Below are positions 33,994-45,421 of a stretch of DNA of 64,000 bases, one piece after another. The notes under the pieces are model-generated. The model did no database searches, was not told the origin of the DNA, and worked only from the letters and a program-made list of their open reading frames with translations. The position numbers were made by a program, and so were the translations under genes. The stretch is from Caproiciproducens galactitolivorans. Its GTDB lineage: Bacteria > Bacillota > Clostridia > Oscillospirales > Acutalibacteraceae. Where the stretch lies: positions 434,001 through 498,000 of the forward strand of contig NZ_SRMQ01000001.1 of the NCBI RefSeq assembly GCF_004768785.1, written 5' to 3'. The stretch's first letter is position 1. Each line of letters opens with the position of its first letter.

Positions 33994-36990
33994 TTATTGC
34001 ACATAATTTTCAACAAACTTATCGTAATCATCAGCTTTAACAAATTTGGCTCCCTGCCCCAGCGCTGCGAAATGTTTTTCGCCACAGCGAATCTTCGCAC
34101 TCTCGGTGGGTCGCAGAGCATCAGCCAGAATATTGCCTTTTGTCTCTACTACGAAGTATAGCCTATTCTGCCCGTTGTCCTCGATGACCACCGCCCAGTC
34201 CGGGTTGTAACTGCCCAGCGGGGTGGCGATCTTGAACCAATCCGGCAGCTTGGCGTAGACCTTGACGCTCTCGTTGCCCTCGAAACGTTCGGCAAAGCTG
34301 CGCTCCACCTCGCTGTCGTAGACCACATAGTTATATACGCTGCGCTGGCTCTCAATCATATTCCGATTCAGATAGCCGGTCAGTTCCTCAGAATCAAACA
34401 GCTCCTGGGCATAGAACTCACTGTCTCCCAGCTTCGTATACTTGATGCCGTCCACGATCAGCAGGCGCATTACCGAGGCAATCGTTTTGGCGGCATCCTC
34501 CATATATGCCTGCGGGTTTTTCTTGAACAGCGGCAGCGTTTTGCTGCGGGTGAGAATCTCCACAATAGTACGTCTGGTCAGGTTGGTGCGGTTTTGCAGA
34601 TAGGTCACAATGTCCGGCAGGTTTTCCTTGACATCTGCCGCCAGCACCGAAAGCCGCTGCGTCTCGGCTGCGGCTACGCCGCCCTCAGTCACACTGACCT
34701 TCGCCTTGGAATACACCAGCTTGGCCGCGCCCACATTCAGGTTCATCTGCAGATTGTCGCAGCATTTTTGAATCAATTCTTCGGAATCAAAGTCCACCCG
34801 GTAGGTGGTTTTATACTTGATCTTTTCCCACAGGGCCTTAAAATCCTCGCCTAAAAACAGCTCCTTGTTCAGCGCTACCACACGCTTGTCCGCCGCCGGC
34901 TTGATATTCAGGTTGCCGCTGGCCTTCTTGCAGACTGCCGCAATGGCGTCGCGCTGCTCGGCGACTGCTTCCGGCACGGTAAGCGTGTTGCTTTTCAGCG
35001 CTGTCTTCAGCGTATCCGTTACCTGATCCTTGCCGTCGATATAGCCGCAAGCCTTGAACGCATGATAGATAAGCTCCGATTTTTCCGCACCGAGGTAGGC
35101 AGCGCTGCCATCGGCCTGCTTGACCGGGATATTGGCAAAGCTGTGGCTTTCCAGCACGCCGAAACGAATACCCTCGTCGGTTTCATACTCGCTTTGCAGC
35201 TTCTTGGCAAAAACATCGTAACTCTCGTTTGCCATGACCGTCAGCGTGTTAATGGCAAAGCCGTGCTGGCGTTCACCGTTCTGATTGACGCACAGGCGCA
35301 GACCGCGCCCGATCTCCTGCCGCTTTTTCACATCGCTCTTGGTTTCGTTCAGCGTGCAGATCTGGAACACATTGGGGTTGTCCCAGCCCTCACGCAGGGC
35401 GGAGTGAGAAAAGATAAAGCGCAGGGGACATTCAAAAGAAAGCAGCCATTCCTTATTCCGCATAATCGTATTAAATGCCGTTTCGTCATCAGCATTTGCG
35501 CGGATATTTCCGGTTTTATCTTCTTTGCTGTCCTTAAATTGTTTTGTCTTTTTATCTATAGAAAAGTATCCGTCATGTACCTTTTCCACCGGGGTATCCA
35601 CGTCCACATCCTCAAACAGGGTGCGATATTTGGGGCGGGCAATCAGTTCCTTGTAGCTGCGCTCAAAAATCACGGCATAAGGGCCCTTGCAGGCATTGCC
35701 GTTCTCGTCGTAATAGCGGTAGTTTGCCACTCGGTCGATAAAGAACAGGCTCAGCACCTTGATGCCGCGATGGTTCAGCGCCAGTTCCTTGTTCAGATGT
35801 TCCTCAATGGTCTTGCGGATCTGCTGCTCTTTAATGGCAAGGTCATCAATGTCGCCCACGGCCTCGCCGATGCGCAGAATCGTGGGCTTGGTAGAAAAGC
35901 TGACATATTCGTTGCCCTGTTCGCAGTAGATTTCATCCACAAGGTAGTTATCATAGACCTCGCGGCCGCCGGTGAGCTGCTGCAAATCGTCCCCGGCGCG
36001 CGCAGTCACGCTCTTGCGTTTGACCGCACCCTTCACTTCACAGTCCAGCTCAATTTTCGCCGTAATGGGCGATTTTTTGTTGTCCACACTCAGCAGCTTC
36101 ATGTAGGCGTTGTTGTGATAGTCCACGCTCTCAAAGCTGGCCACCTCGATCTGCTTCACCAGCTCCATGTCAAAGGCGTCCACCGCGTCCAACTTATAGA
36201 CCAGATTGTGTTTTACCACATGGGTGGCGGAAAAGCGCAGAGTACATAGGGCGTTCAGCGACGCCATGGCCTTTTTGGATGCCACCGCACCATTTCCCTC
36301 CACCGACTGCGGCTCGTCCACAATGACAAAGGGGCGTGTTTCCTGAATCAGCTCGATGGGGCGCATACCGTTGAGCTTGTCGTTCTGGCGGTGGATGATG
36401 TTGGCTTTGTTTTCCTTGTCCGGGTCGTCAAAGCTCTTGCGGAACGCGTCAATGTTAATGACCATGATGGAAATATGATCGCTGACGGCGAAGGAGCGCA
36501 CCTGCTCCAGCTTGTTGCTGTCGTAGATGAAGTAGTCGTATACCGTGTTGTCGTAGAGGTTGCCGAAATGCTCCTGCGTGATTTGCAGGTTTTTATAGAC
36601 GCCCTCTTTGATGGCGATGCTGGGCACCACGATAACAAACTTGGAAAAGCCGTAGGCCTTATTCAGCTCGAAAATGGTGCGCAGATACACATAGGTCTTG
36701 CCGGTGCCGGTCTCCATCTCCACGTCGAAATCGTATGTATTCTTTTTCAGCGCCTTGGTCTGGGGCAGGCCGTTGCGTAACTGCACCGCCTGCAAATTGG
36801 CGAGAAGCTCATCCTCGGTCAGCTCCAGCTTGTTGCCGATGCCGTGGTTCGTGTCCTCCATGCCGACCTGCCCGGCGTAGGCGGATACGGTGAAGTTGGA
36901 CTGCTTGGGCGTCTGGCCCCGAAAGAGGTCGACCACAGAGGAAATCGCCTGCTCCTGATATTGGAGGTTCGCGTCAAATTGAAGTTTCAT
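33994..36990 (-). CDS. Type III restriction endonuclease subunit (Res)
   Basis: 998 residues. Superfamily 2 helicase motor: Walker A in VEMETGTGKTYVYLRTIFEL near residue 120, motif II VDEPQSVEG, motif III RFSATHV, motif VI EIGRGLRLCVN. The C-terminal PD-(D/E)xK nuclease is visible as NPDWAVVIED followed by YFVVETKGN. With Mod it would translocate along DNA and cut next to unmodified sites lying head-to-head. Its ATG overlaps the end of the HEPN-like gene, so it is the last member of the operon. The length is normal for Res. Confidence 0.95.
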   Translation of the reverse strand: MKLQFDANLQYQEQAISSVVDLFRGQTPKQSNFTVSAYAGQVGMEDTNHGIGNKLELTEDELLANLQAVQLRNGLPQTKALKKNTYDFDVEMETGTGKTYVYLRTIFELNKAYGFSKFVIVVPSIAIKEGVYKNLQITQEHFGNLYDNTVYDYFIYDSNKLEQVRSFAVSDHISIMVINIDAFRKSFDDPDKENKANIIHRQNDKLNGMRPIELIQETRPFVIVDEPQSVEGNGAVASKKAMASLNALCTLRFSATHVVKHNLVYKLDAVDAFDMELVKQIEVASFESVDYHNNAYMKLLSVDNKKSPITAKIELDCEVKGAVKRKSVTARAGDDLQQLTGGREVYDNYLVDEIYCEQGNEYVSFSTKPTILRIGEAVGDIDDLAIKEQQIRKTIEEHLNKELALNHRGIKVLSLFFIDRVANYRYYDENGNACKGPYAVIFERSYKELIARPKYRTLFEDVDVDTPVEKVHDGYFSIDKKTKQFKDSKEDKTGNIRANADDETAFNTIMRNKEWLLSFECPLRFIFSHSALREGWDNPNVFQICTLNETKSDVKKRQEIGRGLRLCVNQNGERQHGFAINTLTVMANESYDVFAKKLQSEYETDEGIRFGVLESHSFANIPVKQADGSAAYLGAEKSELIYHAFKACGYIDGKDQVTDTLKTALKSNTLTVPEAVAEQRDAIAAVCKKASGNLNIKPAADKRVVALNKELFLGEDFKALWEKIKYKTTYRVDFDSEELIQKCCDNLQMNLNVGAAKLVYSKAKVSVTEGGVAAAETQRLSVLAADVKENLPDIVTYLQNRTNLTRRTIVEILTRSKTLPLFKKNPQAYMEDAAKTIASVMRLLIVDGIKYTKLGDSEFYAQELFDSEELTGYLNRNMIESQRSVYNYVVYDSEVERSFAERFEGNESVKVYAKLPDWFKIATPLGSYNPDWAVVIEDNGQNRLYFVVETKGNILADALRPTESAKIRCGEKHFAALGQGAKFVKADDYDKFVENYVQ

Positions 36991-37667
36991 TCGTGGTCAC
37001 CTCCGTTTGGAAATAAAGCTTTGGTAAACATTTCTACCACTGCCTTACTGCAAGCATCCATAGCTTCATTGTAATTTTCTTGAATAAAGTCTGTCTCCTT
37101 GCCCTCTAACGCCATAAGCGTTTCTTTAAGAGTGCTATAACTAAGCATCTCATCATCAATATTCTTAAATACAAACTCAGTTTGATACATTAGGTCTGTA
37201 TAGTTTGGAACTTCTGATGTTGGAACTATTGAAACTGGATGGGGTTTTGTGTGGACAATATCGTTTCTTTTCTTCATCAGCGAATCAAGTCGAGAGTAGG
37301 CTTTGTTGCCTGTTGGGTAACACTTGCCAAGAACATCTTTACAAATAGACTTTAGTTTTCCAAGAGTCGTTGCACCCTTAAAATCATACTTGCTATAAAA
37401 AGTATCATTTCCAACCTTTTGAGTTCCATATAAATTCACAAATGCTTCAATTGACAGTGCCTGAAACACAATGGCTGCAATAGCTGAATGTAACCGCATT
37501 GATTGTGCAGTGCAGTATTTTTCATTTTCATCATATGTATGTGAAATCAAATCCCAAGAACCGCATTTAAGAGATTTTAGATATTCTGTTGCATCCTTGT
37601 ATTGAGCATAAAAGCTTTGAGACATTCCGTTGTAATTTTCACACAGCATCGGATAAACATCCATCAT
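36987..37667 (-). CDS. HEPN-like protein inserted between mod and res
   Basis: 226 residues from ATG 37667 (MMDVYPML, just downstream of the mod stop). The protein is helical, with a hydrophobic helix AAIVFQALSIEAFVNLYG and a motif SLMKKRNDIVH. The R-N-D-I-V-H spacing (R, four residues, H, with polar N after R) is the catalytic R-x4-6-H signature of HEPN ribonucleases. The sequence is visibly AT-richer than mod and res. In a defence locus a HEPN domain could act as an abortive RNase. Family assignment rests on the motif and helix pattern only; it may be a non-catalytic relative. Confidence 0.6.
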   Translation of the reverse strand: MMDVYPMLCENYNGMSQSFYAQYKDATEYLKSLKCGSWDLISHTYDENEKYCTAQSMRLHSAIAAIVFQALSIEAFVNLYGTQKVGNDTFYSKYDFKGATTLGKLKSICKDVLGKCYPTGNKAYSRLDSLMKKRNDIVHTKPHPVSIVPTSEVPNYTDLMYQTEFVFKNIDDEMLSYSTLKETLMALEGKETDFIQENYNEAMDACSKAVVEMFTKALFPNGGDHE

Positions 37668-37674
37668 CCTCACC

Positions 37675-39564
37675 TCACACTGTCGTAAATGCGTCCTCGT
37701 CGAGGCCGGCGCATTTGAGGATTTCTTTGATGTTGACCTTGGCACTGTCGTCGGCAAAGCCGTTGTCCTTGAACACGACCTTCCAGGTTTCCGGGGCGAG
37801 CTCCTTGTGGAGCGCCACCATGCCCTCTGCCACGTCGGGGGTGATATGGTCGTCCAGACAGATCATCAGCGCGCCCATGCCAATGGCATAGACGTTTTTG
37901 CCGCCGTAGGTGCGGGTTTCCAGCGGCCATGTCAGGTCAAGGCCCATCTTGAGCATGATTTCATAGACCACATCCAGCTCGGAGCGGCCATCCACATAGT
38001 TGCTGATGCTGTCAAACAGGCTCTGCTCCAAATCGTCCGCGTCCGGCTGCCACTTGCGCAGGTTGGAGGTGTCCAGCTTGAAGTCCTTGAAGCCGATGTC
38101 CGGTACCTTTTTCGGCTCCTCGCCGATTTTGAGCTGGGCGTTCTGCTCCTCAACCTCGGCTTTGATTTTCTCGCCCGCGCGGCGAATGCGCTCCTTGCCG
38201 ATTTCGCAGATATTTTTGTAACCGGCCTTGGCGGCTTCCGTTCCCTCGGCGCAGAGCTCCGGCAATTGCACCATGATGTATTTGCGGTTGCCGCCATCCT
38301 CGGCGTTGAGCTGCATAACGGCATGGGCGGTGGTGGCAGAACCGGAGAAGAAGTCGAGAATGATGGAGCCCGTATCTGAATAGAGTTGAACACAACGCTC
38401 AATTAACCCTACTGATTTTGGATAATCAAACAAAGCTATACCGTCAAATAGCTGCTTCAATTTTTGAGCCGCATCTTGCGAGTGCCCAACTTCCGCGTAT
38501 TTCCAAATTGTCATTGGGGTTATGCCTTGTTTAACTTCTGATAAAAACCGCTTGATTGATGGAACGTTATTCCCGTCACTTCCAAACCAAATCCGATTAT
38601 CATCTACAAATTCTTTGAATCTCCCTTTATCTAACCGCCAGCAATAACCATTTGGAGGCAAAACACGCCGCCCACTTGGTGTTGTGATTTCGTATACTTT
38701 AGAAGCAATAGCGGGTCCGACAGACAGATCACTTGACTTCCAGGGTCCGCGTGGGTCATTATCAGGGTTATCATACCTGTCGTTTGCTTCATCGCTGCGG
38801 GGCAATCCATTGCAGACTGCGACTTCTGCATTTTTTGCATAGCACAAGATATAGTCATGGCTCTCAGAAAAGTGCTTTTTCAAATTTACCGGAGAATATG
38901 CGCGTTCCCAAATGACTTGTGCCAAGAAATTTGACTCGCCAAACACTTCACCACATAGTTTCTTCATATTTTCATCTTCATTATCATCAATGCTAATAAA
39001 AATAACGCCGTCATCGGTCAGTAGGTTTCTTGCCAGCCTTAGCCGGGGGTACATCATGTTCAGCCAGTCGGTATGGTAGCGGCCGTTGGCCTCGGTGTTG
39101 GTGCTGACCTTGCGTCCCTCGGCGTCCACCTGACCGGTGATCTCCTTGTAGTTTTCCAGACTGTCGGAAAAATCGTCCGGATACACAAAGTCATTGCCGG
39201 TGTTGTAGGGCGGGTCTATGTATATCATTTTCACTTTTCCGTGGTAGCTCTTTTGCAGCAGCTTGAGCACTTCCAGATTGTCGCCCTCGATATAGAGGTT
39301 CTGGGTGTCGTCCCAGTTTTTGCTCTCCGCCTTGCAGGGGCGCAGCGTCCCCATGGACGGCGTTTGGCTCAGCCGCAGCGCCTGCCCCTTGCCGTTCCAA
39401 GTGAAGTTATACCGCTCGGCGCTGTCGTCGGTGTACTCGCCCAGCACCTGCTTGAGCTTGTCAAAATCCACCTTGCCCTCGCAGCAAACCTCCGGAAACA
39501 GCTCCCGCAGCGCCGCAATGTTGTCCTTCAATATATCCTCGGATTGCCCGTTAAGTTTTGTCAT
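37675..39564 (-). CDS. Type III DNA methyltransferase (Mod)
   Basis: 629 residues, adenine-N6 methyltransferase and sequence-recognition subunit of a Type III system. Motif IV is MIYIDPPYNTGNDFVYPDDF near residue 135; motif I lies later (DFFSGSATTAHAVM), the beta-class order. The target recognition region is roughly residues 215-385. Its bases, about 38.4-38.95 kb, are AT-richer than the flanks, a sign of past recognition-domain exchange. Its ATG overlaps the upstream gene's stop (ATGA). Confidence 0.95.
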   Translation of the reverse strand: MTKLNGQSEDILKDNIAALRELFPEVCCEGKVDFDKLKQVLGEYTDDSAERYNFTWNGKGQALRLSQTPSMGTLRPCKAESKNWDDTQNLYIEGDNLEVLKLLQKSYHGKVKMIYIDPPYNTGNDFVYPDDFSDSLENYKEITGQVDAEGRKVSTNTEANGRYHTDWLNMMYPRLRLARNLLTDDGVIFISIDDNEDENMKKLCGEVFGESNFLAQVIWERAYSPVNLKKHFSESHDYILCYAKNAEVAVCNGLPRSDEANDRYDNPDNDPRGPWKSSDLSVGPAIASKVYEITTPSGRRVLPPNGYCWRLDKGRFKEFVDDNRIWFGSDGNNVPSIKRFLSEVKQGITPMTIWKYAEVGHSQDAAQKLKQLFDGIALFDYPKSVGLIERCVQLYSDTGSIILDFFSGSATTAHAVMQLNAEDGGNRKYIMVQLPELCAEGTEAAKAGYKNICEIGKERIRRAGEKIKAEVEEQNAQLKIGEEPKKVPDIGFKDFKLDTSNLRKWQPDADDLEQSLFDSISNYVDGRSELDVVYEIMLKMGLDLTWPLETRTYGGKNVYAIGMGALMICLDDHITPDVAEGMVALHKELAPETWKVVFKDNGFADDSAKVNIKEILKCAGLDEDAFTTV

Positions 39565-40247
39565 TTCTTCTTATCCTCCATACCCAGCCGTTTCTGGCTA
39601 CTCATATTGTAGATGTATAGATTTACGGTTCTGCTACATTCTTCTTCATCTGTTTGATCAAATTCTTCTACTAATTTGTAGGTAATTATTTGACTATACC
39701 TATAGCCAATTATATTTTGATAGAAGATTTCTTGTTCCATCAATTTATTAATGTTCTTTTCAGTACCAGCAACCGAGAGCGCAATTTCCAAAACATCCCC
39801 AGCCTGCACTGAATAACATTTTGTCTCATCGTCCTTGATGCGTATGGTGGGCCGCCCTCCCAAATACATCTTAGGTTCATAAGTGAGCCCACTTGCGATT
39901 CCTTGACCAATATTCCTAACAAACACTTTGGCTGACTTTGAATTTACAGCTACATAATGATTATCTTCAAATACTGCCTCTTTTTTGTCCTTTCCGATAA
40001 TTTTCGATACCTCCAAAAATGGACATAGAGTATCGGCAGCATTTAGATCGGCATCATCTTTATTTCTCAGTTCGTTTTGAAAAAAAGCTACAAATCCTAA
40101 AAATGTAGTGCCACAGTAACCCATGTAGGCGTACCAAAAAGAGCTTCGACAAAGATATCCTGTGCATGCTGCTACAATAATAGGCAACGCTATGAAAAAT
40201 GAAGCAATCAAAAACTTTTCATTACCAATCCTTGATTTTCTTTTCAT
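39561..40247 (-). CDS. Two-helix membrane protein of the R-M operon
   Basis: 228 residues. Two transmembrane helices (FLIASFFIALPIIVAACTGYL and the stretch WYAYMGYCGTTFLGFVAFF) lie at residues 12-57, followed by about 170 soluble residues of beta-type character (VRNIGQGIASGLTYEPKMYL, CYSVQAGDVLEIALSVAG). No enzyme motif is recognised. It overlaps the DUF4391 gene upstream and mod downstream (ATGA both sides), so it is firmly part of the operon. It is AT-rich. A sensor or membrane effector role is possible but unproven. Confidence 0.7.
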   Translation of the reverse strand: MKRKSRIGNEKFLIASFFIALPIIVAACTGYLCRSSFWYAYMGYCGTTFLGFVAFFQNELRNKDDADLNAADTLCPFLEVSKIIGKDKKEAVFEDNHYVAVNSKSAKVFVRNIGQGIASGLTYEPKMYLGGRPTIRIKDDETKCYSVQAGDVLEIALSVAGTEKNINKLMEQEIFYQNIIGYRYSQIITYKLVEEFDQTDEEECSRTVNLYIYNMSSQKRLGMEDKKK

Positions 40248-40972
40248 AAGGTCTGCCTCTCTTTCTCCAATATCTTAATCTCCATATTGATTTCAACCTT
40301 CCGGTTAAACTGGGTTTCTCTTTTCAGCTCCGCACGCAGGGCGGCGATTTTGGCTTCCGTGGCCTGCCGCTTTGCCAGCAGCTCCCGCGCCTGCTCGCCG
40401 GTCAAGTTCTCGCAATTATGAATTATGCATTGTGAATTATGCATTAACTCTCGTGCATTATGAATTGAAATCCTGTCCACCAAGTCGCTGTACAGCTCAT
40501 AAAAGTTCCCGTGCCGCAGCGTCTGGAAGTCCAACTCCACACTCAACTCTCCAAACTCCGCACTGTCCATCCACCCGGTGCAGACCGGCTCCTCCAGCAC
40601 GTTTTTCTCGCTGTCGTTCTGGCTGCTGCGCTGGTGCGCCGCCCAAAGCTGCGTCTGGTTTTCGCACTGCAGCACCAGCAGCATGGGGTACGGGATGGTG
40701 CGCATGATGATCTCGGCAATGCGTCGTTCGCCGGCTTGCCGGGTCAGCGCCACTTCGATGAGCTCCACCTCGCCATACTCCCGCGTCGCGTCCTTGTAGG
40801 GTTTTACAAAGCAGTTGTCGGGCTTGAGGGAATACCGCCATGTGATTTTATCAATCCCCTCGGAAAACAGCTTTTTATCCGCCGCCGAGAGCACGCCGTT
40901 TTCATAAAACAGCTTCTTATAAATAACATTATCCACCTTGCAGGCGGCAGGAATATGCAGCGCGTCGTACAT
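40244..40972 (-). CDS. DUF4391-like protein
   Basis: 242 residues from ATG 40972 behind AAGGGAGTG. Features are IPAACKVDNVIYKKLFYENG, WRYSLKPDNCFVKPYKDA, the strand pair MRTIPYPMLLVLQCENQTQL and a charged C-terminal coiled coil (EQARELLAKRQATEAKIAAL). It matches my memory of DUF4391, a family seen next to helicases and Type III-like methylases. Residues about 178-198 are encoded by an AT-rich repetitive stretch (repeats of a TGAATTATGCAT unit at 40424-40470), probably an in-frame insertion. No biochemical role is known. Confidence 0.7.
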   Translation of the reverse strand: MYDALHIPAACKVDNVIYKKLFYENGVLSAADKKLFSEGIDKITWRYSLKPDNCFVKPYKDATREYGEVELIEVALTRQAGERRIAEIIMRTIPYPMLLVLQCENQTQLWAAHQRSSQNDSEKNVLEEPVCTGWMDSAEFGELSVELDFQTLRHGNFYELYSDLVDRISIHNARELMHNSQCIIHNCENLTGEQARELLAKRQATEAKIAALRAELKRETQFNRKVEINMEIKILEKERQTL

Positions 40973-40989
40973 GGTTTCACTCCCTTGCT

Positions 40990-41667
40990 TTAGTACCACT
41001 TTAATCGCCTGTTTTCCATTGCCCTGCTCTCTTTTCTTAATTCTTGAACAAGGAATACTCTTTCAGATTTGTTTAGTTGAAAATCGAACAAATTATACGG
41101 AATGTTGACAATAGTGTTACGCCAGCCTACATAGATTTGTCTCAGATCCGCGCTTGAATTGTAAATTCTTGACATCTCTTGCCGCAAATAATTCAAAGCC
41201 CTATCATTACCATTTAGATAGCACCAGTCTGTACTAAAAATAGCGTCTTGAATATTTCTCCAGTCTTCTCTTTTCCCTGTATGGAAATTGCTCATAGATA
41301 TGCGAATAACAGGTATCGTATAAGAATTACAAACAGCTATAATGACAATCGGATATGGTATTGCAGCAAAAATTGGGCGCATCAACTCATTAAACTGATT
41401 ACGATAAAACTTTTGGAATTTCATTTTCACCTGGATTACCTGTATTTCAGGATAATCGTATTCATCGCACGTAACCGGAATCTTTTGCGCTTTTTCTGGC
41501 GTAAGATTATACAACACTTGTGCCTTTGCAATATTTGCAGCAAGGTCATACAATTTTTTGCCATGGATATTTGCATACTTCTCAAAGTCGGTTCTCGTTA
41601 TGGGAACACCTGAAATCACTTCTTTAGGGACATCTAAAAAACCCACCAGCAAATTTCTGATATCCAA
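40990..41667 (-). CDS. Second DUF4391-like protein, divergent
   Basis: 225 residues. The middle reads PIFAAIPYPIVIIAVCNSYT then IPVIRISMSNFH, which lines up with IPYPMLLVLQCENQTQL of the next gene, and both are of similar length and followed by charged helices. It is therefore probably a distant paralogue. The N-terminal part (DVPKEVISGVPITRTDFEKY) and C-terminal part (LNKSERVFLVQELRKESR) show no catalytic motif. It starts nine bases after the SNF2 gene ends. AT-rich. Confidence 0.5.
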   Translation of the reverse strand: MDIRNLLVGFLDVPKEVISGVPITRTDFEKYANIHGKKLYDLAANIAKAQVLYNLTPEKAQKIPVTCDEYDYPEIQVIQVKMKFQKFYRNQFNELMRPIFAAIPYPIVIIAVCNSYTIPVIRISMSNFHTGKREDWRNIQDAIFSTDWCYLNGNDRALNYLRQEMSRIYNSSADLRQIYVGWRNTIVNIPYNLFDFQLNKSERVFLVQELRKESRAMENRRLKWY

Positions 41668-41676
41668 GCAATCACC

Positions 41677-44600
41677 CTATTTCAGAACCAAGAAAGTAAT
41701 CAGTTCAAAATCATCCATGCCATCATTTAGTGCTTTTTGCAGAGAAGTGCCGCCCTTACTGAAAAGGCTGGCCACGCCGATCTCCTGCTTTTTGCCCACC
41801 AGATTTTCAATGGCGGTCTCCAGCAGCGCAGAGTAGGCTTTCATGTTGCTGCCGTCCTGAGTTTCGGCGTTGAACTGCGCCGCCAGCTCCGTGAGCACTT
41901 CGCCTTGCCCGGAGCAGAGCTTTTTGTAAGCATCCAGAATCTTTTTGGCGTGGAGGAAAGAGAGCTTCACCTCGCCGCTTTGCGTGACATAGAGCAGATA
42001 ATAGGGGAACAGCGCGTTCTGCTCCCGTGTCTGCGCCGCACCGTGTACCTGCCGCAGGGTAAAGATCACGCCGGGGGACAGCTCGCCTTGCAGTTCGGTC
42101 GGAATCTGCGCCACGGCGTACATCCCGGAAGGCGCCTGCGCCAGCTCCTTTTTGTGGTCTTTGAGATAGCCCATCAGGTCGGTTTTGAAGTCATTGAAGG
42201 TCATATCCGTGATGGAAATACCGCCGGAGATGTCTTCCAGATCCACCACTTGGTTTTGCAGGCTCTTGAGCTGCTTGCGGCGATACTCCAAGTCCTTCAT
42301 CTCACGGCTGCCCTCGTCGATGACATTTTCTTCGCCGGTGGCGGAAACATCCAGCAGCACCATGCGCCCCTGCACCCGCTGCTGCAGGTTGATGTATTCG
42401 TCCAAGTCCTGCATAGGCCAGAAATTGACCAGCTGGATGACCTGATTGGTGGAGCCGATGCGGTCGATTCGGCCAAAGCGCTGGATAATGCGCACCGGGT
42501 TCCAGTGGATGTCGTAGTTTATGAGATAGTCGCAGTCCTGCAGGTTCTGACCTTCGGAAATACAGTCGGTGGCGATCAGTACATCAATTTCGCCGGCCAC
42601 ATCCGGGAATATCTTCTCCTTGTTTTTGGAACGCGGGGAGAACAGGGTCAGCACCGTGTTGAGGTCGCTGATTTTCACCCGGCCGCGCTGGCCAGATGGA
42701 ATTTTAAGCGTGGTTTTATTATCGCCGCTGCCGGTCACCATGGCAGCAGTCAGACCGAGCCCGGACAAAAAGGGCGTCAAGTTTTCATACAGGTAGTTGG
42801 CGGTATCCGCAAAGGCGGAGAAAATAACCAGCTTCCGGTTTTCGCCGTTGAGGGGGTTTTTCACCTTATCGGAAATCAGCGTCTTGAGGTCGGAGAGCTT
42901 CTCGTCCCGGTCAGGCGTCACCTGACGGGCAATCTGCAAAATCTGTTCCAGATTTGCGCGGTCACTCAAAAGGTCGTCCTTCCAGCGGATCAGATCCATA
43001 TCCTGCAGCAGCACTTTGACTGATTTGCCCACGGCCAGATCGTCAAGCTCCGGGTCATCCAGATCAATGTCGCCGATGCTGACATCTGCCGGTTCGGACA
43101 GCATTTTGCTGTCGGCAAGGGATAGGGCGTGGTCGATGCCGTGCAGAATCTTGTCTACCGTCAGAGAAAAGGAATGAATGGAGCTTTCCATGCGCTTGAG
43201 GATACCCACGCGCATGAGGTTGACCAGGCTGCTTTCGCGGTCGATCTGCTTAAAGACGCCGCTGCCCACCTGAGCGTCATAGCGCTTGCTGTATTCCGCG
43301 CGCTTTTCCGGCAGAAGATAGGCCAGAGGTGAATAGACGCAGAGGGTCAGGCGCTTGATCATCGTGTTGACGTCGCCGATAGGCGGGAATTCATTTTTAC
43401 TGTCCACACCAGAATAGAGGTTTTTCGGCGGCAGGCGTTTGGGGAACTGACCGATCTCCGCAATGTTGTAGTATTTTTCAATGTGCTTGCGGCTGCGGGC
43501 GATGGTGATGGTATCCAGCAGCTTGAAGTAGCTTAAATCCATCATTTCCACAAAGGTGTCGGAGGTGCGCTCCTCATCCGGCAGCTCCGACCAGCGGTTA
43601 AACACCAGCTGCGCCTTGCGCAGAACGTGCTCAATGCTGGGAATGCCCACCTCGGAAAACGCGTCGTTTTTGCCCTCGGTGATAAAGGCGATCTGATTCT
43701 TGATATCGTTCATCCGGTTATTGACCGGCGTTGCAGACAGCATGAGAACGCGGGTTTTAACGCCCGCGCGAATAATATCTTCCATCAGCCGCTCGTAGCG
43801 GGTGATATGCCCCTTGACGGGCGGATTGTTGCGGAAATTGTGGCTCTCGTCTATGACCACAAGGTCATAGTTGCCCCAGTTGACCGTGGCAAGGTCGATG
43901 TCGCCGCTCTTACCGCTTTCGCGGGAGAGGTCGGTGTGATTGAGCACATCGTAGTGGAAGCGATCAGCAGAAAAAAGGTTGCGTCGATCATTCAGAGTGT
44001 AAATGCTCCAGTTTTCCCGCAGCTTTTTGGGGGCCAACACCAGCACCCGGTCGTTGCGCAGCTCATAGTATTTGATGACCGCAAGCGCGGTAAAGGTTTT
44101 GCCGAGGCCGACGCTGTCTGCGAGAATACAGCCGCCGAACTTCTCGATTTTTTCAATAATACCGATGGCACCGTCTTTTTGGAATTGATAGAGTTTGTTC
44201 CAAATTTCGGTTTCCTTGATACCGGTGCGGGACTTCATAATGTGGTCTTCGGACAGCTCATCCAGATACTGATTAAAGATGTGGTAGAGTGTAACAAAGT
44301 AGATGAACTCAGGCGTGTTTTCCTTATAGAGCACCTGCACCTGCCGGAGCACCTCGTCCTTGATATCCTCAACCGCAGAGCCATCATTCCAGAGATCGTC
44401 AAACATTTTCAGAAACTGTGCTGTGCAGTCGCTTCCGTACATACAGAGGTTGCTGTCCGCTCGGCTGGACGGAGTCAGGCCGAGGCCTTCCGTGGTAAAA
44501 TCCACAGTGCCGTTGATGGAGACAGAATCGACTCCGTTGTCGATATACACAAGGCGCGGCTGTGCGGAGTTTGGGGATGTAAACATTTTGATCTGTGCTT

Positions 44601-44937
44601 TTCGCTCCAGCCATTGGGCACATTCCCGTGCGACGGAGGCCTGACACATTTCATTACGCAGTTTGATTTCGTATTGATTGCCCGAGAGAGCCTGTCCTGC
44701 AGGATGATCTATGTAATATTCACGGCTGGGTTCTTCCTCATTTTTGACAAAAACCGGATCAGTGAACAGCATCCGCACGCCGTCCACCTTCATGAGTTCT
44801 TTTTTTAGCTCCGCAAAAGCATAGATAGTGAAGTAGGCCGTCATTACCGACAGCTTGGAGCCTTTGCTTATATTTTCCCGCAGTTCGTCTGCAACGTTGC
44901 CATTGCGTTTATTGTCAAGCATCTTTGGTGGCTTCAT
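41677..44937 (-). CDS. SNF2-family helicase with N-terminal PLD-like domain
   Basis: 1086 residues. The first 190 residues resemble a phospholipase-D-type nuclease domain (LSVMTAYFTIYAFAELK, VSINGTVDFTTEGLGL), but the usual HxK pair is not visible, so it may be inactive. The SF2/SNF2 motor follows: Walker A LADSVGLGKTFTALAVIKY, motif II VIDESHNFRNNP, motif III LMLSATPVNNRM, and motif VI RIIQRFGRIDRIGST. It likely moves along or remodels DNA for the Type III system. It overlaps the small HTH gene upstream. Confidence 0.9.
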   Translation of the reverse strand: MKPPKMLDNKRNGNVADELRENISKGSKLSVMTAYFTIYAFAELKKELMKVDGVRMLFTDPVFVKNEEEPSREYYIDHPAGQALSGNQYEIKLRNEMCQASVARECAQWLERKAQIKMFTSPNSAQPRLVYIDNGVDSVSINGTVDFTTEGLGLTPSSRADSNLCMYGSDCTAQFLKMFDDLWNDGSAVEDIKDEVLRQVQVLYKENTPEFIYFVTLYHIFNQYLDELSEDHIMKSRTGIKETEIWNKLYQFQKDGAIGIIEKIEKFGGCILADSVGLGKTFTALAVIKYYELRNDRVLVLAPKKLRENWSIYTLNDRRNLFSADRFHYDVLNHTDLSRESGKSGDIDLATVNWGNYDLVVIDESHNFRNNPPVKGHITRYERLMEDIIRAGVKTRVLMLSATPVNNRMNDIKNQIAFITEGKNDAFSEVGIPSIEHVLRKAQLVFNRWSELPDEERTSDTFVEMMDLSYFKLLDTITIARSRKHIEKYYNIAEIGQFPKRLPPKNLYSGVDSKNEFPPIGDVNTMIKRLTLCVYSPLAYLLPEKRAEYSKRYDAQVGSGVFKQIDRESSLVNLMRVGILKRMESSIHSFSLTVDKILHGIDHALSLADSKMLSEPADVSIGDIDLDDPELDDLAVGKSVKVLLQDMDLIRWKDDLLSDRANLEQILQIARQVTPDRDEKLSDLKTLISDKVKNPLNGENRKLVIFSAFADTANYLYENLTPFLSGLGLTAAMVTGSGDNKTTLKIPSGQRGRVKISDLNTVLTLFSPRSKNKEKIFPDVAGEIDVLIATDCISEGQNLQDCDYLINYDIHWNPVRIIQRFGRIDRIGSTNQVIQLVNFWPMQDLDEYINLQQRVQGRMVLLDVSATGEENVIDEGSREMKDLEYRRKQLKSLQNQVVDLEDISGGISITDMTFNDFKTDLMGYLKDHKKELAQAPSGMYAVAQIPTELQGELSPGVIFTLRQVHGAAQTREQNALFPYYLLYVTQSGEVKLSFLHAKKILDAYKKLCSGQGEVLTELAAQFNAETQDGSNMKAYSALLETAIENLVGKKQEIGVASLFSKGGTSLQKALNDGMDDFELITFLVLK

Positions 44938-45122
44938 CTTGCCACCTCTGTTTCATGACTTGCAGTACGCGGGTCGGCAGGCTTTTTCGCGTCTGGTGGC
45001 AAGAGCCATGTCTTACCAGCCTTTACTGTACCGGGAATGCGCCCCTGTGCACAAAGAATTGCCACTCTGCGGGGAGATATTCCCCAAAGCTGAGCTGCCT
45101 GCTTTGTTGTTAGAAACTCCAT
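44934..45122 (-). CDS. MerR/excisionase-type helix-turn-helix protein, operon leader
   Basis: 62 residues from ATG 45122 behind GAGGTG. The winged HTH core is EFLTTKQAAQLWGISPRRVA then ILCAQGRIPGTVKAGKTWLL, the DNA-binding fold of MerR/excisionase proteins. The Pro/Lys tail is short, with no ligand domain. Its stop overlaps the helicase ATG (ATGA). It could autoregulate the operon or act as the element's excision factor. A palindrome 90 bases upstream is a candidate operator. Confidence 0.8.
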   Translation of the reverse strand: MEFLTTKQAAQLWGISPRRVAILCAQGRIPGTVKAGKTWLLPPDAKKPADPRTASHETEVAR

Positions 45123-45158
45123 AATTCGCACCTCGCCGACTATATTTCGATAGATAAT

Positions 45159-45187
45159 AGTATATTCTTTTATCTGAATATTTACAA
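45159..45187 (-). promoter_or_regulatory. Promoter of the defence operon
   Basis: On the minus strand TTGTAA (45182-45187), 17 bases, TATACT (45159-45164), 36 bases before the HTH gene. It is the only good promoter seen for the overlapping genes down to res. Confidence 0.65.
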
Positions 45188-45211
45188 GCGCTTTTTTGCA
45201 GATTGAGGTTA

Positions 45212-45225
45212 TAGATATTTATCTA
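45212..45225. promoter_or_regulatory. Palindrome upstream of the defence operon promoter
   Basis: TAGATATTTATCTA, a perfect 14-base palindrome 25 bases upstream of the -35 box. A related half (ATAGATAATAGTATA) overlaps the -10 region. Candidate operator for the HTH protein. Confidence 0.35.
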
Positions 45226-45235
45226 CTAAACTGCA

Positions 45236-45273
45236 GAAGCCGCCTAAAACTTTCGTTTTAGACGGCTTTTTAA
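45236..45273 (+). terminator. Terminator-like hairpin inside the right end of the element
   Basis: AGCCGCCTAAAAC and GTTTTAGACGGCT pair around TTTC with one mismatch, followed by TTTTAAG. No plus-strand gene ends just before it, so it may shield the operon promoter from outside transcription. Bases 45274-45409 show no gene. Confidence 0.5.
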
Positions 45274-45421
45274 GTGTTGGCATTCCTTGGATACATACTT
45301 GGTGGATATAAATAGATTTCTTTCAAATAGGCTTAACAAGTAATAATAAATATGAGCAGCCAGGTAAGGATTGTCCTTGGCATCTGTCCATATTTCCCCG
45401 TACACGGCATTAAGCCCCATA

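What the first reader, a model, noticed from the sequence alone, without database searches (positions are those of the whole stretch)
36987..37667. HEPN-type R-x4-H protein between mod and res
The motif RNDIVH in a helical protein matches the HEPN nuclease signature, with the polar residue after Arg. The gene is AT-richer than both neighbours: hand counts of two 60-base samples gave 37% and 42% GC against 55% in one res sample. It could make the system abort infection if restriction fails.
Basis: partly seen in the sequence, partly recalled or inferred. Interest (0 to 1): 0.65.

Follow-up and report, generated by a model that had tools for sequence, protein, structure and literature searches.

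The report
Predicted RNA-cutting gene inside restriction operon
Between the two main genes of a bacterial DNA-restriction system sits a probably acquired gene for a protein that looks like an RNA-cutting toxin; its small family has no name in the libraries searched, but the general arrangement, a toxin tucked into a restriction operon, is already known.

Summary
The 226-residue gene at 36987-37667 (-) carries R134-NDIV-H139 and has 36.6% GC, against 51.9% for mod and 53.1% for res. Eight relatives (20-33% identity) keep R, H, E74 and K141 at the same columns: 9 of 9 with the window. The predicted structure is all-helical (pLDDT 82.5); the 19 best rows of the structural comparison are HEPN-fold proteins, HepT toxins first (Z 9.9; three rows so classed from recall). 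No Pfam, NCBIfam or PADLOC model reaches its cut-off. I accept a HEPN protein, probably an active RNase.

The abortive-infection role is inference. The gene is missing from close relatives of the cassette (L080, L081), where mod and res lie 16 bp apart. It is one of three AT-rich extras among four GC-richer core genes. In related systems 14 of 42 mod-res junctions hold extra genes, AT-richer than both neighbours in 14 of 14; no recognised HEPN model fits the 13 loci scanned. A restriction gene was recognised beside only 1 of 8 family relatives, in a partial search. Best reading: acquired HEPN toxin in a type III operon, acting like PrrC or as independent defence cargo.

The parts
36987..37667 (-). 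HEPN-family protein, 226 aa, predicted metal-independent RNase; start at 37667 or the next ATG at 37664
37251..37268 (-). codons of R134-N-D-I-V-H139, the R-x4-H motif
   Evidence: R and H invariant in 9 of 9
37446..37448 (-). codon of E74, the invariant upstream acidic residue
36997..37004 (-). GGAGGTGA, Shine-Dalgarno-like sequence of res, inside the last codons of the HEPN gene
   Evidence: compare L080, where a similar sequence lies between mod and res
36987..36990 (-). ATGA overlap: HEPN stop and res start
37668..37676 (-). GAGGTGAGG, ribosome-binding-like sequence overlapping the mod stop, directly before the HEPN start
37675..39564 (-). mod: type III DNA methyltransferase, DPPY at residue 117
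33994..36990 (-). res: type III restriction subunit, helicase motifs plus RE_endonuc domain
39561..40247 (-). AT-rich extra gene with a hydrophobic N-terminus (read from the sequence), no family; relative in L093
40244..40999 (-). DUF4391 protein, core gene of the cassette
40990..41667 (-). second, divergent, AT-rich DUF4391 protein, an extra
41677..44937 (-). SNF2-type helicase, PADLOC label C3a139 HKD+Snf2, core gene of the cassette

Best explanation
The gene encodes a single-domain HEPN protein, most likely an active metal-independent RNase toxin, acquired as an AT-rich gene and placed exactly between the stop of mod and the ribosome-binding site of res in a type III restriction cassette (SNF2 helicase, DUF4391, Mod, Res). 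It is probably co-translated with both neighbours. Proposed action: it is held quiet in the healthy cell and released when a phage blocks or overwhelms restriction, cutting RNA and stopping growth: a second line of defence working like PrrC in its type Ic operon. Shown by computation: gene, motif, conservation, HEPN-like predicted fold, absence from related cassettes, operon layout. Inferred: horizontal acquisition, RNase activity (about 0.8), role in phage defence (about 0.75), control by the restriction proteins rather than by a phage trigger of its own (about 0.5).
For: R134, H139, E74 and K141 invariant in 9 of 9 sequences in an alignment with 30% mean column identity; N, D or H follows R in 9 of 9, as described for HEPN domains that keep the motif (PMC3710099 passage). 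AlphaFold model all-helical, pLDDT 82.5, pTM 0.77; rows 1-19 of the VIA comparison are HEPN-fold proteins (HepT Z 9.9, 5yep Z 9.6, Csm6 Z 7.3), the first unrelated row being row 20 at Z 7.0. Pfam HEPN_RiboL-PSP, E 0.0065, falls on residues 116-143, which contain the motif. Gene absent, and mod-res gap 14-16 bp, in close cassettes L080-L082; no match in the 4 other same-genus genomes listed. ATGA overlap with res and a res ribosome-binding-like sequence inside the HEPN tail. GC 36.6% against 51.9-53.2% for the core genes. No terminator-like site on the minus strand between 36700 and 41677. One relative lies beside a type I specificity gene. Mod DPPY and the Res and SNF2 helicase motifs are present.
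Against: No RNase or toxicity data. Foldseek found no significant PDB or viral match (best E 0.74 and 0.05); phmmer finds only a Dps chain at E 0.46 and the family profile no PDB sequence at E up to 10. Z below about 13 can mean little for helical bundles (note). Some single members match unrelated Pfam models better than HEPN (DUF6548 E 0.00043, PARP 0.00085, one member each). The Ex3[KR] motif described for many HEPN families is only half present: E74 is invariant, but the residue at +4 is N in 7 and Y in 2 of 9. A restriction gene was recognised near only 1 of 8 relatives. In other cassettes the recognisable slot genes are of other kinds, which argues for general cargo rather than a dedicated sensor of this system. 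Promoter-like sites exceed the shuffled mean in the region (21 against 9.8), some inside this gene, so an own promoter is not excluded.
Confidence: 0.5

Rival explanations
1. Independent defence cargo: an active HEPN RNase that senses a phage component by itself, like Tha of S. aureus prophages, and merely shares the operon for co-expression and co-transfer, without contact with Mod or Res.
For: No restriction gene recognised near 7 of 8 relatives, in a partial search; no neighbour shared among the family loci, so no sign of a conserved antitoxin (68 sequences compared, 6 of them the window's operon proteins); the slot carries unrelated genes in other cassettes; Tha is a HEPN RNase with motif RNSIMH, activated by phage tail proteins (PMC11087260 passages).
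Against: The exact fit between mod stop and res ribosome-binding site with an ATGA overlap suggests coupled expression, which a free-standing sensor would not need. Tha has a long non-HEPN N-terminal part; this protein is matched to HEPN chains over most of its length (model residues 2-5 to 186-197 in the leading rows).
Confidence: 0.33
2. Non-catalytic or regulatory HEPN domain, for instance an RNA-binding or protein-binding adaptor of the restriction complex.
For: Some HEPN domains that lack the motif are thought to act without catalysis, such as MtlR (PMC3710099 abstract). No activity has been shown here.
Against: R, H and the polar residue after R are all kept in 9 of 9 sequences.
Confidence: 0.12
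3. Not a HEPN protein: an unrelated helical protein with a chance R-x4-H.
For: No family or Foldseek match reaches significance; R-x4-H alone is common (14 of 44 window ORFs).
Against: 19 of the 19 leading rows are HEPN-fold proteins, and the motif is invariant in 9 of 9.
Confidence: 0.05

Closest known systems
PrrC in the EcoprrI type Ic restriction locus
   Same: A HEPN RNase gene embedded in a restriction operon; known back-up when restriction is blocked, which is the role proposed here (PMC3710099 and PMC12707154: passages seen).
   Different: PrrC carries an N-terminal ABC-type NTPase and sits in a type I system; this protein is a single HEPN-like domain in a type III cassette.
HepT (SO_3166) of HEPN-MNT toxin-antitoxin pairs
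   Same: Leading structural matches, Z 9.6-9.9.
   Different: No MNT antitoxin gene among the 7 operon proteins scanned, and no sequence similarity to these chains detected.
Tha of Staphylococcus aureus prophages
   Same: Anti-phage HEPN RNase with an RN-type motif (RNSIMH); its HEPN part also resembles 5yep (DALI Z 9.9 in that paper; PMC11087260 passages; here 5yep gives VIA Z 9.6).
   Different: 301 aa with a long N-terminal part; prophage-borne, with an overlapping antisense inhibitor gene.
HEPN_RiboL-PSP, Pfam PF18735
   Same: Weak profile match on the stretch that contains the motif.
   Different: 16.8 bits against a cut-off of 28.4; 2 of 9 members match at E up to 1, best 0.0065.
HEPN genes linked to restriction systems in the 2013 survey (at least 16 clades, PMC3710099)
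   Same: Same kind of genomic context; that survey also notes RhuM-like genes in loci with PrrC-like and restriction genes (passages), and RhuM occurs in the slot here.
   Different: The passages I saw do not describe this family or a mod-res position; its two uses of the term type III concern CRISPR. Its supplement was not available.

Membership tests
HEPN superfamily | all-helical HEPN bundle | tested here: met
   Model all-helical; rows 1-19 HEPN-fold, Z 9.9 to 7.3 (1jog, 1wty and 1ylm so classed from recall). Foldseek itself not significant.
HEPN superfamily | conserved Rx4-6H motif | tested here: met
   R134 and H139 invariant in 9 of 9 aligned sequences.
HEPN superfamily | polar residue (N, D or H) right after R | tested here: met
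   N in 5, D in 2, H in 2 of 9.
HEPN superfamily | upstream acidic residue, typically in Ex3[KR] | tested here: inconclusive
   E74 invariant in 9 of 9, but the residue at +4 is N in 7 and Y in 2.
HEPN superfamily | metal-independent RNase activity | not testable with these tools
   needs the bench
HEPN superfamily | R and H placed in a dimer cleft | not tested
   monomer model only; residue pairs of the superposition were not shown
Pfam HEPN_RiboL-PSP (PF18735) | score over the curated cut-off | tested here: not met
   16.8 bits against 28.4; 2 of 9 members match at E up to 1.
PrrC/RloC | fusion to an ABC-type ATPase | tested here: not met
   226 aa, no ATPase domain by Pfam.
HEPN-MNT toxin-antitoxin pair | adjacent MNT nucleotidyltransferase gene | tested here: not met
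   Neighbours are Mod and Res; no nucleotidyltransferase among the 7 operon proteins scanned.
Tha | long N-terminal non-HEPN part | tested here: not met
   226 aa; the model aligns to HepT from residue 2-4 to 185-187.
type III restriction-modification system (host operon) | Mod methyltransferase with DPPY-type motif plus Res helicase-nuclease | tested here: met
   MTase_III E 1.6e-238 and REase_III E 0; DPPY, GTGKT, DEPQ present.
PrrC-like guardian of restriction | held inactive by restriction proteins, released when they are inhibited | not testable with these tools
   needs deletion and inhibitor tests

The most novel reading that the evidence does not exclude
The mod-res junction of SNF2-DUF4391-type III cassettes is an exchangeable cargo slot, and this HEPN protein, from a family without a name in the libraries searched, is a restriction guardian for a type III enzyme: it is held by Mod or Res and fires an RNase when a phage blocks them, extending the PrrC principle to type III systems with a single-domain effector that has no ATPase.
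Probability: 0.3. Interest if true: 0.62.

Novelty: new member of a known kind. Interest (0 to 1): 0.38.

Why it matters
If true, it gives a small, testable case of a restriction guardian in a type III system. It also points to a recognisable place, the mod-res junction, in which to look for new defence genes: 14 of 42 related loci carry extra genes there, and in 9 of the 13 of these loci that were scanned no slot gene scanned reached a Pfam cut-off. The HEPN identity alone is not surprising: HEPN genes in restriction operons were surveyed in 2013 (PMC3710099).

Tried and rejected
Relatives in viral contigs, plasmids and phages: none found. PADLOC and NCBIfam: no hit for the protein. phmmer against PDB sequences: one Dps chain at E 0.46; family profile: nothing at E up to 10. 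Pfam on the 9 members: HEPN_RiboL-PSP in 2 of 9; 13 other families in one member each, the best being DUF6548 (0.00043) and PARP (0.00085). PHROGs: no hit for the window protein; other members give scattered hits, best E 0.00028 to an unnamed family. Viral fold search: best E 0.05, an uncharacterized phage protein. A bridge through HEPN_RiboL-PSP relatives was dropped: of 79 genomes one has a match over the cut-off, with a stop inside. A chance motif was rejected because of conservation and fold. A shared neighbour (possible antitoxin) was looked for within 4 kb of the relatives and not found.

HEPN as the usual slot gene was not supported. Of the 14 loci with slot genes, 13 were scanned with Pfam (L103 was not; its sequence was read and is nearly the same as L104 over much of its length; of the two ORFs in L048 one was scanned). 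Over the cut-off: an ABC-three-component set (L044), RhuM (L100, L104) and YhcG (L107); nothing in the other 9. A possible second case, L042, has a partial HEPN-like gene (RNSFSH; pEK499_p136, E 0.0097, below cut-off) directly before res, but its contig ends there and mod was not seen. L046 has a 376-aa protein with RNDVMH before mod, without a HEPN match.

Rows dropped: L014 (gene broken by stops) from the alignment; L004 (short match with stops) from the family; 6 of 48 surveyed loci without a mod-res pair (L042, L050, L083, L084, L087, L110); genome G620 had Res matches but was not fetched. L040 (gap 342 bp, no ORF of 60 aa listed in it) and L038 (gap 192 bp, 87-aa ORF) were not counted as occupied slots. 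Gaps are estimated from the alignment of Res.
Full report
What is there. The window holds a minus-strand operon, in the direction of transcription: SNF2 helicase (41677-44937), a divergent DUF4391 protein (40990-41667), a DUF4391 protein (40244-40999), a protein with a hydrophobic N-terminus (39561-40247), mod (37675-39564), the gene of interest (36987-37667) and res (33994-36990). Mod and Res match type III models (PADLOC MTase_III E 1.6e-238, REase_III E 0; Pfam N6_N4_Mtase, ResIII, RE_endonuc). DPPY, GTGKT and DEPQ are present, so the restriction genes look intact; the SNF2 protein has GLGKT and DESH but no HxKx4D motif, although its best PADLOC model is labelled HKD+Snf2. No terminator-like site was found on the minus strand between 36700 and 41677, while promoter-like sites are more frequent than in shuffles (21 against 9.8 in 36700-45300), some of them inside this gene.

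The observation. RNDIVH is residues 134-139 of a 226-aa protein. GC is 36.6% (GC3 30.8%), against 51.9% for mod and 53.1% for res. The motif alone is not remarkable: R-x4-H appears in 6.4% of shuffles of this protein and in 14 of 44 window ORFs; the stricter R[NDH]x3H in 0.8% and in 2 of 44 (this gene counted in both).

Relatives. The family is rare. Counting the own genome, protein searches hit 2 of 300 genomes of the family, 3 of 391 of the class, one of these a short match with stops, and 2 of 398 of the phylum; a profile search at E up to 1e-4 hit 1 of 283 class genomes, the own one. These draws overlap in part. A scan of the genome collection gave 9 loci; 8 have an open frame over the motif (L012 without a start codon for its full length), and L014 is broken. 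L011, L012 and L013 hold the genes already seen. Nothing was found in viral contigs, plasmids or phages. In the alignment of 9 sequences (20-33% identity to the window protein) the invariant columns are F68, A70, E74, K104, I108, R134, H139 and K141, and the residue after R is N, D or H in 9 of 9.

Fold. AlphaFold2 on this alignment gives an all-helical model, pLDDT 82.5, pTM 0.77, with residues 144-159 poorly predicted. Foldseek against the PDB finds nothing significant (best E 0.74), and the profile finds no PDB sequence. The second look by VIA-align puts HEPN-fold proteins in rows 1-19: HepT complexes (Z 9.9-9.6), AF_0298 (9.1), HI0074 (9.0), Thermus proteins, further HEPN-MNT toxins, sacsin (8.2), YutE (7.9), P95883 (7.7 and, as a second entry, 7.3) and Csm6 (7.3); the first unrelated row is row 20 at Z 7.0. 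That 1jog, 1wty and 1ylm belong to the HEPN fold is recalled; 1wwp, 2hsb, 2q00 and the integron cassette protein 3jrt (row 26, Z 6.3) are named as HEPN in PMC3710099 (passage). The tool warns that Z under about 13 may mean little for helical bundles, so the weight lies in the unbroken run of one superfamily together with the motif, not in Z itself. As a yardstick, the paper on Tha, a HEPN RNase shown to degrade RNA in cells, reports DALI Z 9.9 to 5yep for its HEPN part (PMC11087260 passage); here 5yep gives Z 9.6. The residue pairs of the superposition were not shown, so I could not confirm directly that R134 and H139 fall on the HepT catalytic pair.

How it got there. I compared 48 loci around Res relatives from 47 of the 48 other genomes with a match. 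Of the 42 with a Mod-Res pair, 26 have a junction of 54 bp or less, 14 hold one or more ORFs of 100 aa or more, L040 has a 342-bp gap without a listed ORF and L038 an 87-aa ORF. Among the closest relatives, L080 and L081 (Res 67%) have SNF2, DUF4391, Mod, Res in order and 16 bp between mod and res, and L082 (Res 65%) has 14 bp. So the core is four genes and the window carries three extras: GC 36.6, 36.8 and 36.6%, against 51.9, 53.0, 53.1 and 53.2% for the core. The 4 other same-genus genomes listed have no match to the gene. In L080 a GGAGG-type sequence lies between mod stop and res start; in the window the HEPN gene begins 7 bp after the mod stop behind GAGGTGAGG, and its last codons contain GGAGGTGA, followed by an ATGA overlap with the res start. 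The insert thus sits between the mod stop and the res ribosome-binding site and is probably coupled in translation to both.

The slot. In the 14 related loci with slot genes, those genes are AT-richer than both mod and res (14 of 14, by 0.4 to 14.9 points below the lower of the two). Low GC is therefore a property of slot cargo, not of the HEPN gene alone. Thirteen of the 14 loci were scanned with Pfam: an ABC-three-component set (L044), RhuM (L100, L104) and the YhcG nuclease (L107) pass their cut-offs, and the other 9 show nothing over a cut-off; L103, not scanned, reads much like L104. A sub-threshold pEK499_p136-type HEPN fragment lies directly before res in L042, but mod is beyond the contig end.

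Neighbours of the family elsewhere. No ORF around the 8 relatives matches the window's restriction proteins. Pfam was run on 10 neighbour ORFs of 6 of these loci: one beside the L013 gene has a type I specificity domain, and L011 has a T5orf172 gene. No neighbour within 4 kb is shared between loci (68 sequences, 6 of them the window's own), so there is no sign of a conserved antitoxin. Several flanks are short and L010 and L012 neighbours were not scanned, so absence is soft.

How it works. I take the protein for an active HEPN RNase (about 0.8). Two routes to activation fit the data: control by the restriction proteins, as with PrrC, which its restriction partner keeps inactive until a phage inhibitor strikes (PMC3710099 and PMC12707154, passages), or a phage trigger of its own, as with Tha. 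The tight fit between mod and res favours the first; the relatives without recognised restriction genes and the mixed slot cargo favour the second. I give 0.5 to the first and 0.33 to the second.

Novelty. HEPN genes linked to restriction systems are known: at least 16 clades in 2013 (PMC3710099, passage), and a 2025 review speaks of guardian systems and toxin-like accessory genes of restriction loci (PMC12707154, passages). My searches of the open library for HEPN with type III restriction, for accessory or embedded genes, for the SNF2/phospholipase D combination and for DUF4391 showed no paper, among the titles and abstract starts listed (capped lists), that describes this family or this slot; subscription papers are not held. 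The family appears unnamed in the libraries searched; the kind is not new.

Noticed in passing
window 39561-40247 (-): AT-rich extra gene (36.8% GC) with a hydrophobic N-terminus and no family, between DUF4391 and mod; a 35% relative lies upstream of mod in L093.
   Followed up: partly
window 40990-41667 (-): A second, divergent DUF4391 protein (36.6% GC) beside the core DUF4391 gene (53.2% GC); DUF4391 appears in only one paper of the open library (listing).
   Followed up: partly
window 41677-44937 (-): The SNF2 helicase best matches the PADLOC model labelled HKD+Snf2 but has no HxKx4D motif.
   Followed up: no
L044 5813-9193: A whole ABC-three-component set (CTD8, MC2, AAA_23) sits between mod and res.
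   Followed up: partly
L042 4064-4279 (-): Partial HEPN-like gene (RNSFSH, weak pEK499_p136 match) directly before res at a contig end.
   Followed up: partly
L046 9002-10132 (+): 376-aa protein with RNDVMH between DUF4391 and mod, no HEPN family match.
   Followed up: partly
L047 3838-4566 and 6522-7301 (-): In a genome of the same genus the cassette carries two other extra genes, one between mod and res and one before mod, neither with a Pfam family.
   Followed up: partly
L014 7881-8400: A proteobacterial (Limnohabitans) member of the family, broken by stops.
   Followed up: no
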